From assembly GCA_017618215.1 (NCBI GenBank), contig JAFZUQ010000006.1, forward strand, positions 124,001 to 188,000: a DNA stretch of 64,000 nt. Direction: 5' to 3'. The DNA comes from Elusimicrobiaceae bacterium. Its GTDB lineage: Bacteria; Elusimicrobiota; Elusimicrobia; Elusimicrobiales; Elusimicrobiaceae. The notes beneath the pieces were generated by a model. That model was not told where the DNA came from. It saw only the letters and a list, made by a program, of their open reading frames with translations, and did not search any database. The position numbers and the translations under genes were made by a program. This document shows, piece by piece, positions 15,879 through 24,930 of the stretch; the stretch's first letter is position 1; the number at the start of each line of letters is the position of its first letter.

Positions 15879-18344
15879 TTATTTACGTTTACTTCTTTTT
15901 ACTGCTTTTTTTACAATCTTTTTAGCAGTTTTTTTAACTGCCTTTTTTGCTTTTACGGCAATTTTCTTGGCCGCTTTTTTTGCAATTTTTTTTACTGCTT
16001 TTGATTTCTCAATTTTCCCGAAAACAACTTTTGCGACTTCATCCATGTGTGTTACCGGAATAAGATTGAGTTCTCTTCTAATCTGCTCAGGTATTTCGGA
16101 AACATCTTTTTCATTAGTTTTTGGGTACAAGATTGTATTGATTTTTTCACGGTAAGCTGCCAAAAACTTTTCCTTAATACCGCCGACGGGTAAAACACGC
16201 CCTGTTAAGGTAATTTCACCTGTCATTGCAATACCCTTTTTAACAGGGGTATTGGTAATCAAACTGACTAAAGCCGTACAAATTGCTGTGCCGGCACTTG
16301 GGCCATCTTTCGGAACAGCACCTTCGGGGAAATGAATATGAATATCGTTTTTGTCAAAATCGAACTTCTTACCATACCCTTTTGCACGGGCATAACTTAA
16401 AGCAGCTTGAACACTTTCCTTCATAACATTTCCAAGCGCACCGGTTAAAATAAGGCGGCCTTTGCCTTTAAAAGAGGTGGCCTCAATGGCAAGGGTTTCC
16501 CCCCCAACCGAAGTCCACGCAAGGCCGGTAGAAATACCGATACCGTTTTCTTCCGCTGCAAAATTTGTATATTTTGGAATTCCCAAAAATTTTTCCAAAT
16601 TCTCTTTGGTAACCTTAACTGACTTTTTATCTTCAATATACATTTTGGCAACTTTTCTGGCAATTGTGCCTATTTCGCGTTCAAAGCGGCGCACGCCTGC
16701 TTCACGCACATAATCGCGCATTATAGAATCTAAAGCACTATTATCAATTTTCAAAATATCGTCTTTTAAACCATGCTCTTTTAACTGCCTGGGGATTAAA
16801 TATCTTGTGGCAATTTCGCGTTTTTCATAATTTGTGTAACCGGAAAATTCTATAACTTCCAAGCGATCGCGCAAAGTCGTAGGGATTGATGCTAAAGAAT
16901 TTGCCGTAGTAATAAACATTACTTTTGATACATCAAAAGGAACATCTAAATAATGGTCCACAAAATCTTTATTTTGTTGCGGGTCCAAAAGTTCAAGGAG
17001 TGCAGCAGCTGGATCACCGCGCCAATCGGAACCCATTTTATCAATTTCATCTAGCAAAAATACGGGGTTATTTGTTTTGGCTTTGCTGATACCTTGAATA
17101 ATACGCCCGGGCATCGAGCCGATATAAGTGCGTCTATGACCGCGTATTTCGCTTTCATCACGCACACCGCCAAGGGACATCCTTATAAATTTGCGACCAA
17201 TAGCTGAAGCTATTGATTTTGCAATTGAAGTTTTACCTGTTCCCGGTGGACCGACAAAGCATAAAACAGGCCCTTGCAAACTCTTTGTAAGTTGGCGAAC
17301 TGCAAGATATTCTAAAACACGTTCTTTAACTTTTTCAAGACCGAAGTGATCTGCTTCCAACACGGCTTTAGCTTTTTCTAAGTCCAAAATATCTTCGCTT
17401 GAAATATTCCAAGGCATATTAACAAGCCAATCTAAAAATGTTCTTGAAACAGTTGATTCCGGCGAAAAAGGCGCCATTTTGCTAAGACGTTCAATTTCTT
17501 TATTTGCGACTTCCGCTGCCTGTTTTGGCAGATTATTTTTTTTGATTTTATCGCGCAGTTCATCTAAATCTTTTTGGAAATCATCTTTTTGGCGCAATTC
17601 TTTTTGAATTGCTTTCATTTGCTCATTTAAGTAATATTCCTTCTGCGATTTATCAATTTGGCGTCTGACTTTGGTATGGATTTTTTCTTCCAAATTAATA
17701 ATTTCTACTTCACCGGCAAGAAGTTTTAAAAGTTTCTCAAGACGAGTTTTAACATTTACCGCTTCTAAAATATTTTGCCTTTCTTGTGTTTTAACTATAA
17801 TATTTGAGGCAATGGTATCCGCAAGTTTTGAAGGATCTTCGATCTGCCTTAAAAATGATACCCCTTCAATAGCAATGCGTTTTGAGGCCATAGCATATTC
17901 TTCAAAAGCATCTAAAGTTTGGCGCATTAAGGCCTTGATTTCCGGATTAGGTTCAGCATCATCTTGAGGATAAGTTACCTCTGCAAACCAACATTTTGCG
18001 ACATTATCAAAAGCCAAATTGTTTATTTTTGCACGGGACACCCCCTGTAAAAATACTTTCATGCTACCATCCGGCATTTTTAAAGACTGTGTAATTTCGG
18101 AAAGCACGCCGAATTTATAAATATCATCTTCGGTCGGATCATCAATTTCCGCAATTTTTTGGGAAACGGATAAGACATATTTACCTGTCGTTCCAAGTGC
18201 AAGTTCTATTGCCATAACAGATTTTTTTCTGTCAACCGAAATCGGCAAAGACATACCGGGAAACATCACCACGTCTCTAATAACGATGGCCGGTAATCTG
18301 CTCGGAAACATTGATTCTTTTTTAATGTCATTTGTAAGGTCCAT
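15879..18344 (-). CDS. lon: ATP-dependent Lon protease with Lys-rich C-terminal tail
   Basis: Lon degrades damaged and regulatory proteins in the cytoplasm. The 821-residue chain has the LON substrate domain (about 17-210) and a coiled coil (225-290). The AAA+ module follows, with Walker A GPPGTGKT (365-372) and Walker B FLLDEID. The protease domain has catalytic Ser683 (GPSAG) and Lys724 (GGIKEK). Residues 779-821 form an unusual histone H1-like tail in which 19 of the last 41 residues are Lys and none is acidic. The ATG at 18344 is preceded by AGGGGTG; in-frame sequence upstream lacks coding character. An extended -10 promoter is at 18399-18407. Confidence 0.96.
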   Translation of the reverse strand: MDLTNDIKKESMFPSRLPAIVIRDVVMFPGMSLPISVDRKKSVMAIELALGTTGKYVLSVSQKIAEIDDPTEDDIYKFGVLSEITQSLKMPDGSMKVFLQGVSRAKINNLAFDNVAKCWFAEVTYPQDDAEPNPEIKALMRQTLDAFEEYAMASKRIAIEGVSFLRQIEDPSKLADTIASNIIVKTQERQNILEAVNVKTRLEKLLKLLAGEVEIINLEEKIHTKVRRQIDKSQKEYYLNEQMKAIQKELRQKDDFQKDLDELRDKIKKNNLPKQAAEVANKEIERLSKMAPFSPESTVSRTFLDWLVNMPWNISSEDILDLEKAKAVLEADHFGLEKVKERVLEYLAVRQLTKSLQGPVLCFVGPPGTGKTSIAKSIASAIGRKFIRMSLGGVRDESEIRGHRRTYIGSMPGRIIQGISKAKTNNPVFLLDEIDKMGSDWRGDPAAALLELLDPQQNKDFVDHYLDVPFDVSKVMFITTANSLASIPTTLRDRLEVIEFSGYTNYEKREIATRYLIPRQLKEHGLKDDILKIDNSALDSIMRDYVREAGVRRFEREIGTIARKVAKMYIEDKKSVKVTKENLEKFLGIPKYTNFAAEENGIGISTGLAWTSVGGETLAIEATSFKGKGRLILTGALGNVMKESVQAALSYARAKGYGKKFDFDKNDIHIHFPEGAVPKDGPSAGTAICTALVSLITNTPVKKGIAMTGEITLTGRVLPVGGIKEKFLAAYREKINTILYPKTNEKDVSEIPEQIRRELNLIPVTHMDEVAKVVFGKIEKSKAVKKIAKKAAKKIAVKAKKAVKKTAKKIVKKAVKRSKRK

Positions 18345-18473: not shown

Positions 18474-19292
18474 ATGAAAATTAAAAGGAAAGACGGTTCT
18501 GTCTTGGAAATTTGCAAATCAAAAGTCTACGATTTAACAAAACTCGGTTTAACTGATGATTTTTTAAAAAACTTACCGGACAATTTTGATAATATAGGCA
18601 CCACAATATATGCTGCTAGAAATCAAATAAAAGTTTTAGATTCTAACGGTCACAAAATAAATATAAAGAAATACTGTATACCACCGATAATTAACAGATT
18701 CTTTTACTCAACAGGTTTAAGAACCCCAAAATGTATAAGCGCTTTTATAAATGCACAAAAAATTCTAGACGTGGGTTTTGAAACACCAAAACCATATGCT
18801 TATATTATAGAACGCAAAAATGGGCTTATCCGCCACTCTTACTTTATAAGTGATCAAATAGAAAATGCGAAACAAGTACGTGAGTGTCATGGTGTTAGTT
18901 TTATGCAAGCTTATGCCTTATATACCGCACAAATTCATGAAAAAGGGCTTTTCCCCCGCGATTATACCCCCGGTAATATTTTGTGCCGCAAAGAAGACGG
19001 CAAATACCGCTTTTTCCTCATTGATGTTAACAGATTCTATTTTAAAAATAAACCCTTAACTAAAGACCAGGCTCCTTATAACCTTTATACAACAATGTCT
19101 AGTGAAAGAGCTTTGTGCTATTTCATCCGCTGTTATAGCAAATACCGCGGTATGGATGAAAAATATTTAAAATACAAAACCTTTCTTTGCCGTCGTGTAA
19201 GGGCAAAATATAGCGCATTAAAGAAATTATTAAAGAAAATCCCTGGCGTAAAAAAACTTACACTTAAACCTATTAAGAAAAATAACCAATAA
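18474..19292 (+). CDS. Kdo/WaaP-like lipopolysaccharide kinase family protein
   Basis: The 272-residue protein resembles small bacterial kinases that phosphorylate lipopolysaccharide core sugars. Its kinase-like catalytic core reads HEKGLFPRDYTPGNILC (about 153-169), where a D-x4-N arrangement matches the catalytic loop. FFLIDVNRF (about 177-185) takes the place of the DFG-type metal site. The C-terminus is rich in Lys and Arg. There is no signal peptide, consistent with a cytoplasmic enzyme acting on the inner face of the membrane. Substrate is not known. The last 100 bases are duplicated at 19950-20024, showing that this gene was part of the tandem duplication that made the two downstream genes. 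Confidence 0.7.
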   Translation: MKIKRKDGSVLEICKSKVYDLTKLGLTDDFLKNLPDNFDNIGTTIYAARNQIKVLDSNGHKINIKKYCIPPIINRFFYSTGLRTPKCISAFINAQKILDVGFETPKPYAYIIERKNGLIRHSYFISDQIENAKQVRECHGVSFMQAYALYTAQIHEKGLFPRDYTPGNILCRKEDGKYRFFLIDVNRFYFKNKPLTKDQAPYNLYTTMSSERALCYFIRCYSKYRGMDEKYLKYKTFLCRRVRAKYSALKKLLKKIPGVKKLTLKPIKKNNQ

Positions 19293-19294
19293 TT

Positions 19295-19431
19295 TACTAT
19301 TTCCCCCCTTGAAAATATAGAAAAAAACTATTATAATTATCTTGTAGTGAGACTTAAATATTAAGGAGAATAACTATGAGAAAGTTTTTATTATTTGCAA
19401 TTGCAATCTCATTAGGTAGTATTGCTTTTGC
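19295..19431 (+). repeat. 5' module of duplicated cassette, copy 1
   Basis: This 137-base block covers promoter, leader, ribosome-binding site and signal-peptide codons. It matches 20041-20177 at about 133 of 137 positions without gaps. Confidence 0.95.
19309..19337 (+). promoter_or_regulatory. Sigma70 promoter of secreted-protein gene, copy 1
   Basis: TTGAAA (19309-19314), a 17-base spacer and TATAAT (19332-19337), 38 bases before the ATG. The same promoter is conserved in copy 2. Confidence 0.8.
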
Positions 19432-19840
19432 GGCAGGCAATTGGTATTGTGAACGTTTTTCACCTCCCCAATGGCGTTTTAATCTCAAAGGATGTAAAAG
19501 TTGCCCGGTAACTAATAGCCAAGGTGAACTGATCACCTGCGAAAGTTTACCATCCAACCACGTCCCTATTGCTGCACAAGATTGCTGCTGGAATAGGCCT
19601 CCTCTTCAAACCAGTGGCGGTACCGGTGGTGGCAGATATTCCTGCACTACCGACCATTTCGCAGGTTTATACTCTTCCCCAGAATGCGATGCGTTTTTTG
19701 CCCAATACGGCGGGCGCGGCGGAAAAGGGAATAATAAAGGCGGCAAAAACAGTAGCATAAAAAGTAACACTAAAAATGTTGCAAAAGTAACTAAATCTAC
19801 AAAAATTACACCAGTACAAAAAGCAGAAAAGAAAAAATAA
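19376..19840 (+). CDS. Small Cys-rich secreted protein, copy 1
   Basis: The 154-residue product has a clear signal peptide (MRKFLLFAIAISLGSIAFA). The mature part begins with a Cys-rich module (KGCKSCPV, then a Cys, then DCCW, about residues 40-77). A Gly-rich linker and a Lys/Thr-rich tail ending TPVQKAEKKK follow. The N-terminus and C-terminus are nearly identical to the gene at 20122-20715 while the middle has diverged strongly. A point change creates a TAA that ends this copy four codons before the copy 2 frame. It has its own promoter and terminator and a strong AAGGAG. The function is unknown; a disulfide-bonded surface or periplasmic protein is likely. Confidence 0.8.
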   Translation: MRKFLLFAIAISLGSIAFAAGNWYCERFSPPQWRFNLKGCKSCPVTNSQGELITCESLPSNHVPIAAQDCCWNRPPLQTSGGTGGGRYSCTTDHFAGLYSSPECDAFFAQYGGRGGKGNNKGGKNSSIKSNTKNVAKVTKSTKITPVQKAEKKK

Positions 19841-19910
19841 GTCGCCAAATAAAATAGTATATTTACCCCCACAGCATAGTAAAACTATTAAAGTGGGGGT
19901 TTTTATATGT
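19806..19910 (+). repeat. 3' module of duplicated cassette, copy 1
   Basis: The 105-base block with the last codons and terminator matches 20669-20773 at about 101 of 105 positions. Confidence 0.93.
19865..19904 (+). terminator. Terminator of secreted-protein gene, copy 1
   Basis: ACCCCCAC (19865-19872) pairs with GTGGGGGT (19893-19900), with an inner ATAGT/ACTAT pair, then TTTTT. Confidence 0.9.
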
Positions 19911-19949
19911 ATCGTTCTTTATCTATTTAATCTCATATCTATACTATGG

Positions 19950-20024
19950 AAAGTATTAAAATACAAAACCTTTCTTTGCCGTAGTGTAAGGGCAAAATAT
20001 AGTGCTTTTAAAAGACTATTAGGG
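19950..20024 (+). pseudogene. Relic of the 3' end of a second WaaP-like kinase gene
   Basis: About 49 of the first 54 bases match the kinase gene at 19161-19214. The same frame reads LKYKTFLC and VRAKYSA in both. The relic has no start, no catalytic part and no matching stop; it runs into the copy 2 promoter. It shows that the ancestral duplicated unit was kinase plus secreted protein and that almost all of the second kinase was deleted. Confidence 0.85.
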
Positions 20025-20040
20025 AAAACAATTAATAGTT

Positions 20041-20177
20041 TACTATTTCCCCCCTTGAAAATATAGAAAAAAACTATTATAATTACCTTGTAGTGGAACT
20101 TAAATATTAAGGAGAATGACTATGAGAAAGTTTTTATTATTTGCAATTGCAATCTCATTAGGTAGTATTGCTTTTGC
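20041..20177 (+). repeat. 5' module of duplicated cassette, copy 2
   Basis: Counterpart of 19295-19431: promoter, leader, AAGGAG and signal-peptide codons, with about four substitutions. Confidence 0.95.
20055..20083 (+). promoter_or_regulatory. Sigma70 promoter of secreted-protein gene, copy 2
   Basis: TTGAAA (20055-20060), a 17-base spacer and TATAAT (20078-20083), identical in layout to copy 1. Confidence 0.8.
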
Positions 20178-20715
20178 ACTTAATGGCGTAGATTGTTCAG
20201 TGGAAGAAAATTGTCATTGCAATTTCTTCACACAAGAACAATTCTATGGCATCAAAGGATGCTCAAGCTGCCCAGTGCGTGAAAACGGTCACTATGTTAA
20301 GTGTGAGACAATAGCTAATGGAGGTGTGGTTAACACAGATTGTTGTTGGCTTAATACGCCACAACGTCCACAAAACCATCCATGGAGCAATTGCTACACT
20401 AATGCTTATGTGATACTTGATCCAAGCTACGGACCACCATGGGCTAGAAACTGTGTAAAACTTCTTGATGCTTTGGTAGGCAATGGCCCAGAAAGTGGTG
20501 CCGGTGCACCAAATGGTGGCAATGGTAACAATGGTAGCAATGGTAACAATGGTGGGGCTGCCGTTAAAAAGACTAAAGTCAACAAACCGACTGGCCATGT
20601 TATTACACCATCTAAACCTGTAAAAGTTAATACTACGGCCCAGAAATCTTCTGCATCCGCTGCAAAAGTTACACCAGTACAAAAAGCAGAAAAGAACAAA
20701 AAAGCCGCTAAATAA
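20122..20715 (+). CDS. Small Cys-rich secreted protein, copy 2
   Basis: The 197-residue paralogue of the gene at 19376-19840 has an identical 19-residue signal peptide, the shared Cys pattern (GCSSCPV, one Cys, DCCW) and the shared tail TPVQKAEK. Its middle differs. It carries extra Cys residues (CSVEENCHC) and an Asn/Gly repeat (NGGNGNNGSNGNNGG, about residues 132-147). The ATG at 20122 is chosen because copy 1 has only this start behind the same AAGGAG; an ATG two codons upstream exists only here. It has its own promoter and terminator. Function unknown. Confidence 0.8.
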   Translation: MRKFLLFAIAISLGSIAFALNGVDCSVEENCHCNFFTQEQFYGIKGCSSCPVRENGHYVKCETIANGGVVNTDCCWLNTPQRPQNHPWSNCYTNAYVILDPSYGPPWARNCVKLLDALVGNGPESGAGAPNGGNGNNGSNGNNGGAAVKKTKVNKPTGHVITPSKPVKVNTTAQKSSASAAKVTPVQKAEKNKKAAK

Positions 20716-20773
20716 AATAGTATATTTACCCCCACAGCATAGTAAAACTATTAAAGTGGGGGTTTTTATATGT
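20669..20773 (+). repeat. 3' module of duplicated cassette, copy 2
   Basis: Counterpart of 19806-19910, including the C-terminal codons and the terminator hairpin. Confidence 0.93.
20728..20767 (+). terminator. Terminator of secreted-protein gene, copy 2
   Basis: ACCCCCAC (20728-20735) pairs with GTGGGGGT (20756-20763), followed by TTTT. Confidence 0.9.
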
Positions 20774-20788
20774 CTTAATCTTTATTAT

Positions 20789-20817
20789 TTGACCTTATGC
20801 TCCTAATATGTTAAAAT
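20789..20817 (+). promoter_or_regulatory. Promoter of the rimP-nusA-infB operon
   Basis: TTGACC (20789-20794), a 17-base spacer and TAAAAT (20812-20817). Transcription would start near 20824, about 60 bases before the rimP ATG. Confidence 0.75.
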
Positions 20818-20837
20818 AAATTATCAACACATCTTGC

Positions 20838-22760: not shown

Positions 22761-24930
22761 AGACGCGGAAAAGAAAACAAAAACAACCGCTAAAAAAACA
22801 ACAACTAAAAAAACAACGGCTAAAAAAACTACCGCTAAAAAAACTACGGCAAAAAAACCGGCAGCCAAAAAAACTACTGCCAAAAAAACTGTCGCAGAAA
22901 AAGAAGTGAAGCAAAAAACTGTCACAAAAGCGGAAATTGAAAATTTAAAACAAGAGGCTAAACCGGAAATCAAGGCGGAAGTAAAAACAGAAATTCGCCA
23001 AGAACATAAACCCGTTGTCAAACCCGAAGTTAAACATGAGGTTCAGTCCGAAATCAAACCGGAACCTAAATCTGAGGTTAAATACGAAGTTAAACCGGAA
23101 CCTAAACAAGAAGTAAAACCGGTACATAAAGAACAACAAAAAGCACCGGTAGTTGAAGATAAACCGAAGGAAAAAGTCATCAAAATTTTAGGCCAACCGA
23201 CAATCAAAGAACTTGCCGAAAAGATGGACTTTAAAATAAATGACTTTATCAAAAAACTTATGGGTATGGGTATTTTTGCGACTATCAACCAAAAACTTGA
23301 ACCCGATATGATAGAACTTGTTTTATCCGAGTGCGGTTTTAAAGCAGAAATTACACAGGAATTTGCGGAAGAAGAAATCGCTGCACAGGAACAAGATAAT
23401 CCAGCTGACCTTCAGCCACGCGCACCTGTTGTAACGATTATGGGCCACGTCGACCACGGTAAGACAAGTTTGCTTGATGCTATACGCCATTCAAATGTTG
23501 TCGCAGGTGAATTCGGCGCAATCACACAGCATATCGGTGCATACAGGGTTAAAACTTCACGTGGATATATTTCCTTCTTGGATACCCCAGGCCATGAGGC
23601 TTTTACCGCTATGCGTGCAAGAGGTGCGCAAGCAACCGATATTGTTATTTTAGTTGTTTCCGCTACCGATGGTATAATGCCGCAAACTATTGAGGCTATA
23701 AACCACGCACAAAGTGCAAAAGCACCTATAATTGTAGCGGTAAACAAAATTGACTTACCGGGCGCAAACCCCGATAGAGTTAAACAAGACCTCGCCGGCC
23801 GCGGTTTAGTACCCGAAGAATGGCAAGGAAACACAATCTTTGTAGAAATTTCCGCAAAGAAACGTATTAATATTGATAAACTTCTTGAAATGGTTTCAAT
23901 TCAAGCGGAAATGATGGAACTTAAAGCAAACCCAAAACGCAAAGCAGTCGGCGTAATTTTGGAAAGTAAACGCGATAATAAAAGAGGTGTTGTTGCTACC
24001 GTTTTAGTACAAAAAGGTACTTTAAAAGTCGGCGATCCTTTTATTGTCGGTACTACTTACGGAAGAGTGCGTGCATTAATTGATGAACACGGCCACCGTA
24101 TGCAAAGCGCAGGCCCAAGCGTCCCTGCTGAAGTTTTAGGTATTAACGGCGAACCGCCTGTTGTGGGTGAAACTTTATATGTTGCCGAAAGTGATAAGGA
24201 AGCCAAACATATTTCCGAAAAACGCAAACTTGCACATAAAGCGGAACATATTGAACACCAAAAACATGTTTCTTTAACTAACTTAAAGAGTGCAGACGGT
24301 AAGAAAATCAAAGAACTTGCAATCATTTTGAAAGCTGACGTGCAAGGCTCTATTGAAGCAATTAAAGATGCTATTTTAGGCCTTACTAACGACGAAGTAC
24401 AAGTTAAAATCATACACTCCGCCGCCGGGGACGTTAATGAATCAGACCTTTTGCTTGCCAAGGCAAGTGATGCGGTTATAATTGCATTTAACGTAAATAC
24501 CATGTCTTCCGTTTCAGAAGAAGCAGAACGCGAAGGTATTGAAATACGCACCTATAACATTATCTTTGAATTACTTGAGGACTTAAAGGCCGCAATGGAA
24601 GGCTTGCTTGAGCCGGAAATTGTTGAAGAAGTCGTAGGCCGTGCAACAGTCAGGCAAGTATTTGATTTAAGTTCCGGTTTTATTGCCGGCTCTTATGTGG
24701 ATGAAGGTAAAATCACACGTAATTTTGATGCAAAAATTATGCGTGGTGGTGAACAAATCCATAAAGGCAAAATCGGCGGTTTAAAACGCTTTAAAGATGA
24801 TGTCAGGGAAGTAGAAAAAGGTTATGAATGTGGTATTTTGATTGAGGGCTTTAGAGGCACAAAAGCAGGGGATACTGTCCTTTGCGTGCAGAAGAAGACG
24901 ATCACAAGACGCATTACAAAACCTGAGTAA
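22735..24930 (+). CDS. infB: Translation initiation factor IF-2
   Basis: IF-2 is the GTPase that brings initiator tRNA to the ribosome. The 731-residue protein starts with a low-complexity region: Lys/Thr/Ala repeats (14-55, units like TTAKK) and Pro-Glu-Val-Lys repeats (76-135). The IF2-N domain (about 150-200) and the G domain (G1 GHVDHGKTS 237-245, [16 protein letters not shown]) follow, with domains II to IV up to the C-terminus. The ATG at 22735 lies inside nusA behind GAGGAGG, which decides the start. Terminator 24946-24974 ends the operon. Confidence 0.97.

What the first reader, a model, noticed from the sequence alone, without database searches (positions are those of the whole stretch)
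18474..20773. Recent tandem duplication of a kinase-secreted protein unit with diversified middle
Two neighbouring secreted-protein genes share 137 bases of promoter and signal region (about 133 identical) and 105 bases of 3' end and terminator (about 101 identical), while their middles differ in length and sequence. Between them lies a relic of the upstream kinase gene (19950-20024). Conserved ends and rapidly changing centre is the pattern of antigen-like or toxin-like cassettes under diversifying selection or gene conversion.
Basis: seen in the sequence. Interest (0 to 1): 0.6.

Follow-up and report, generated by a model that had tools for sequence, protein, structure and literature searches.

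The report
Tandem secreted genes with mismatched middles
In a gut or rumen bacterium of the little-studied phylum Elusimicrobiota, two neighbouring genes for small cysteine-rich exported proteins share nearly identical beginnings and ends left by a short tandem duplication, but their middles are so different that at least one of them must have come from an older, diverged gene version by recombination.

Summary
Genes 19376-19840 and 20122-20715 share identical signal peptides, near-identical promoters (94%) and 3' ends/terminators (96%), and a copy of the kinase 3' end lies between them. The repeated unit is not a whole kinase-secreted pair. It is a segment of about 0.8 kb bounded by the 8-mer TTAAAATA at 19167, 19956 and 20811: in the kinase, at the junction, and before rimP. 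The 'relic' is most simply the junction. The middles are homologous (shared KGC-x-x-CPV and DCCW motifs) but saturated at synonymous sites: 12 of 30 identical residues use the same codon, against 28 of 29 at the ends (p about 3e-6). That exceeds the divergence of flanking lon and nusA between species. Selection on duplicated copies cannot explain it; one middle was probably exchanged for, or the tandem formed from, a diverged allele. The genome is an Elusimicrobiaceae; the gene occurs in only 3 of 90 family genomes, and no silent cassettes were found. The kinase (Kdo/WaaP-like) is not a stable partner. Antigen- or toxin-like function is untested and no strain data were available. Probably a new member of a known evolutionary kind, in an unstudied phylum.

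The parts
18474..19292 (+). Kdo/WaaP-like (LPS core) kinase, 272 aa; source of the duplicated 3' tail
   Evidence: Pfam PF06293 27.1 bits, above its cut-off 21.3; intact orthologues G010 73%, G014 65%
19167..19955 (+). copy A of the ~0.8-kb tandem unit (kinase 3' end, promoter, secreted gene W1, terminator, degenerate rimP-promoter-like region)
   Evidence: bounded by TTAAAATA at 19167 and 19956
19309..19337 (+). sigma-70-like promoter of W1 (TTGAAA-17-TATAAT)
   Evidence: 11/12 consensus match; promoter+5'UTR conserved 84% in G010
19376..19840 (+). W1: exported Cys-rich protein, 154 aa, 8 Cys in the mature part, basic tail
   Evidence: ORF, Cys count; no family match
19376..19432 (+). W1 signal peptide MRKFLLFAIAISLGSIAFA, identical in W2 and G010
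19433..19796 (+). W1 divergent middle (mature domain)
   Evidence: identity to W2 falls to 35-64% in 40-column windows, synonymous sites saturated
19797..19936 (+). W1 conserved 3' end, terminator-like hairpin CCCCCAC...GTGGGGG-T5 and ~35 nt beyond
   Evidence: 92% over 126 nt; 90% over 94 nt of the non-coding part
19937..19955 (+). degenerate end of the rimP-promoter-like region running into the junction
   Evidence: aligned with the sequence upstream of rimP in the window, G002 and G010
19956..20028 (+). decayed copy of the kinase 3' end ('relic'), starting exactly at the TTAAAATA junction
   Evidence: 88% over 73 nt; internal deletion relative to the kinase
19956..20818 (+). copy B of the tandem unit, ending at the rimP-proximal TTAAAATA (20811-20818)
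20055..20083 (+). sigma-70-like promoter of W2, same as that of W1
20122..20715 (+). W2: exported Cys-rich protein, 197 aa, 10 Cys, Gly/Asn-rich linker, basic tail
   Evidence: closest relative G010 at 55% over 120 aa
20179..20659 (+). W2 divergent middle (mature domain)
20660..20785 (+). W2 conserved 3' end and terminator

Best explanation
A short tandem duplication at a rapidly changing locus for an exported Cys-rich protein, combined with recombination that gave the two copies different mature domains. Shown: the repeated unit of about 0.8 kb is bounded by the 8-mer TTAAAATA, which is conserved before rimP and also present in this species' kinase gene. Illegitimate or unequal crossover between the two would give exactly the observed order. 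Shown: the flanks coalesced after this species split from G010, while the middles are at least as diverged as the two species. Inferred: the event joined two different alleles of one locus (for example resident and imported DNA), or one copy later received a foreign middle through crossovers in the conserved signal-peptide and 3' ends. Inferred: the products are exported by Sec, are disulphide-stabilised in the envelope or outside the cell, and vary because they meet a changing partner (phage, protist, competitor or host factor), while signal sequence, basic tail and expression signals stay fixed.
For: TTAAAATA at 19167, 19956 and 20811 only, with degenerate rimP-promoter sequence just left of the middle one; the rimP-side 8-mer is present in G002, G010 and G014. 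Ends: W1-W2 94-98% against 72-93% to G010. Middle: same codon at 12/30 shared residues against 28/29 at the ends, Fisher p 2.6e-6; 35-44% same codon under four alignment settings against 56-58% for W2-G010. Middle pS 0.79 against 0.44-0.45 for lon and nusA between the window species and G010. Identity drops within a few bases of the predicted signal cleavage site. The orthologous gene in G010 is also fast-evolving (dN about 0.4 against 0.02-0.03 for lon, rimP and nusA). A ComEC-family protein is present, so DNA uptake is conceivable.
Against: No donor allele was found: only 3 of 90 family genomes have the gene. Only one genome per species is held, so exchange among strains is not shown. Middle alignments are short and gapped, and pS near saturation is imprecise. 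Part of the end conservation is functional constraint (promoter and signal peptide are 84-93% conserved to G010), so the age contrast rests most firmly on the kinase tail and the 3' untranslated region. The kinase-tail copy itself has diverged about 12%, so the duplication is not very recent.
Confidence: 0.7

Rival explanations
1. Two old paralogues whose ends have been kept alike by gene conversion, while the middles escaped conversion.
For: Middles are as old as or older than the split from G010; ends alike.
Against: The non-functional kinase-tail copy and the junction also match, and conversion would have to maintain a useless tail; G010 has a single complete copy and no second one was found.
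Confidence: 0.2
2. Recent duplication followed by positive selection on the mature domain alone.
For: Fast amino-acid change in the middle; shared Cys motifs.
Against: Synonymous sites in the middle are saturated while those at the ends are nearly identical (p 2.6e-6); selection on protein sequence does not raise synonymous divergence this way.
Confidence: 0.06
3. A programmed variation system (diversity-generating retroelement, or silent-cassette gene conversion as for pilins) changes the middle.
For: Cassette-like layout; one reverse transcriptase gene exists elsewhere in the genome.
Against: No further copies or silent middles in the genome; the reverse transcriptase is on another contig and nothing links it to this locus; differences include many indels and all base types.
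Confidence: 0.03

Closest known systems
Group A Streptococcus emm/mrp/enn (M and M-like protein) cluster
   Same: Neighbouring related exported-protein genes, with recombination producing chimeric members (PMC9993116, read)
   Different: No sequence relation looked for or expected; those are wall-anchored proteins of a Gram-positive. Here a short Sec-exported Cys-rich protein, two copies only, no strain data, function unknown
Conotoxin-type precursors
   Same: Highly conserved signal peptide, hypervariable mature part with conserved cysteines (PMC6471451, read)
   Different: Animal venom peptides of unrelated origin; here no toxic activity is known and the mature domain is larger with a basic tail
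Kdo/WaaP lipopolysaccharide kinase family (upstream gene)
   Same: PF06293 above cut-off
   Different: Only its 3' end takes part in the repeat; in relatives it is usually found without the secreted gene

Membership tests
Recombining antigen-type (mosaic) gene family | segments of a gene with clearly different divergence, not explained by selection alone | tested here: met
   ends 28/29 vs middle 12/30 same codon, p 2.6e-6
Recombining antigen-type (mosaic) gene family | several alleles in the population with exchange between strains | not testable with these tools
   one genome per species; no strains held
Recombining antigen-type (mosaic) gene family | positive selection (dN/dS above 1) on the exposed part | tested here: inconclusive
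   pN 0.51 vs pS 0.79 for W1-W2, 0.34 vs 0.59 for W2-G010: below 1, but saturation and gene-wide averaging limit power
Silent-cassette gene conversion system | additional promoterless copies of the variable part in the genome | tested here: not met
   only the two loci in the own genome; genome 93% complete
Diversity-generating retroelement | nearby reverse transcriptase and template repeat with adenine-specific changes | tested here: not met
   the only RVT_1 hit is on contig C10; changes are not adenine-specific
Toxin with immunity partner (bacteriocin or polymorphic toxin) | adjacent immunity gene and recognisable toxin or export domain | tested here: not met
   neighbours are lon, the kinase, rimP and nusA; no Pfam or NCBIfam hit for W1 and W2
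Kdo/WaaP kinase (upstream gene) | PF06293 match above the gathering score | tested here: met
   27.1 vs 21.3 bits; kinase activity not tested

The most novel reading that the evidence does not exclude
Gut Elusimicrobiota carry a hypervariable locus between lon and rimP in which the mature domain of an exported Cys-rich protein is swapped between alleles through conserved signal-peptide and terminator ends: an antigenic-variation-like system in a phylum where none is known to me.
Probability: 0.2. Interest if true: 0.6.

Novelty: new member of a known kind. Interest (0 to 1): 0.35.

Why it matters
If strain comparison confirms swapping of the mature domain, this would be a variable surface or secreted factor in a gut phylum with hardly any cultured members, pointing to an arms race with phages, protists or the host. 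As it stands it is a clear small example of a microhomology-bounded duplication plus recombination creating a new pair of proteins.

Tried and rejected
Structure prediction of W2 with four sequences gave mean pLDDT 39 and was not used for a fold search. Sequence searches of solved structures, Pfam, NCBIfam, plasmids and viral contigs gave nothing convincing. A genome-contig search with W2 alone found no relative. Weak hits in G001, G004, G007 and G017 (542-544 aa frames) and G024 (531 aa frame) were judged low-complexity chance without further follow-up; the G082 hit overlaps a 635-aa ORF. A second Cys-rich exported protein on contig C12 with a similar promoter shows no homology to the family beyond a weak signal-peptide match. 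A diversity-generating retroelement was considered and rejected. In the first dS run rimP of the window was read out of frame and was redone; the infB rows are out of frame and not used. In one search the 'middle' and 'C-term' ranges overlap by 7 alignment columns, which makes the middle look slightly less divergent (conservative); one search uses separate ranges.

Full report
What is there. The window lies on contig C6 of a 1.34-Mb genome. The gene order is lon (minus strand), kinase, W1, kinase-tail copy, W2, rimP, nusA, infB (names other than the kinase are from my reading of the translations). The kinase matches the Kdo/WaaP family above its cut-off. W1 and W2 match nothing in Pfam or NCBIfam.

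Three direct-repeat pairs were found mechanically: the kinase 3' end (88%), the promoter to signal peptide (94%) and the 3' end with terminator (92%). Blast of the intergenic parts extends these to one unit. The two promoters are the same near-consensus site, TTGAAA-17-TATAAT, and each gene ends in a hairpin CCCCCAC...GTGGGGG followed by T's (read; the simple terminator scan does not list it, probably because of its long loop).

The unit and its junction. The 8-mer TTAAAATA occurs three times between 18001 and 21400: at 19167 in the kinase, at 19956 where the kinase-tail copy starts, and at 20811 before rimP. The last is conserved before rimP in G002, G010 and G014, while the kinase 8-mer is not present in G010. 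Left of the 19956 junction lies a degenerate version of the sequence found before rimP. Crossover between the kinase 8-mer and the rimP-side 8-mer would produce exactly this. The 'relic' therefore does not require that a whole kinase gene was ever duplicated. The microhomology mechanism is inferred from the junction.

Mosaic divergence. At the ends W1 and W2 resemble each other more (94-98%) than either resembles G010 (72-93%). In the mature domain the order is not kept: of residues that are identical, W1 and W2 share the codon in 12 of 30 cases, against 28 of 29 at the ends (Fisher p 2.6e-6). At the clearest anchor motifs, counted by hand (KGCxSCPV, CE, DCCW), it is 4 of 12 (p 4e-5). Four other alignment settings give 35-44% for W1-W2 and 56-58% for W2-G010. 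Middle pS for W1-W2 is 0.79, whereas lon and nusA of this species and G010 differ at pS 0.44-0.45. The middles thus separated no later than the species did, although the flanks did so afterwards. Protein-level selection cannot cause this; recombination with a diverged version can. Whether it happened during the duplication (two alleles joined) or later cannot be told.

Distribution. In 90 Elusimicrobiaceae genomes only the window species, G010 (one complete copy) and G002 (3' half at a contig edge) have the gene. In G014 the kinase is followed directly by rimP. Kinase relatives in other genera have no Cys-rich exported neighbour within the stretches fetched. The rimP neighbourhood of the remaining genus members shows neither kinase nor secreted gene where it could be read. 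No silent copies of middle or ends exist in the assembly. Kinase and secreted gene are therefore neighbours, not a demonstrated functional unit.

Function. All three complete proteins have a Sec-type signal peptide (judged by eye), an even number of mature cysteines (8, 10, 14) and a net positive charge with a Lys-rich tail. This suggests disulphide-bonded envelope or extracellular proteins, but no VKOR was found, DsbA/DsbB were not searched, and the structure model is unusable. Antigen-like or toxin-like roles are analogies to M-protein clusters (PMC9993116) and conotoxins (PMC6471451), not memberships.

Limits. One genome per species, metagenome assemblies, three to four sequences, saturation at synonymous sites, and no strain data.

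Noticed in passing
15879-16010 (minus strand): Lon protease ends in a Lys/Ala-rich, histone-H1-like tail (about 40 residues), present with variations in G002, G010 and G014.
   Followed up: partly
L025:1412-1924 (own contig C12): Another exported Cys-rich protein with two CCW motifs, a basic tail and a promoter region 76% like that of W1, found only in this genome of the genus.
   Followed up: partly
L025:1-1221 (own contig C12): Two tandem pilin-like genes with nearly identical N-terminal parts and diverged C-terminal parts, a similar 'constant start, variable remainder' layout.
   Followed up: no
L064:1348-2274 (own contig C10): A 308-aa reverse transcriptase (RVT_1) with an FVDD motif, possibly retron-type, with no link to the window.
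   Followed up: no
18474-19292: The kinase evolves several times faster at the protein level (dN 0.20 to G010) than lon, rimP and nusA (0.02-0.03), which could reflect changing LPS structure.
   Followed up: no
22764-22928: The infB-like (IF-2) gene begins with an array of 15-nt repeats encoding KKTTA-type repeats.
   Followed up: no
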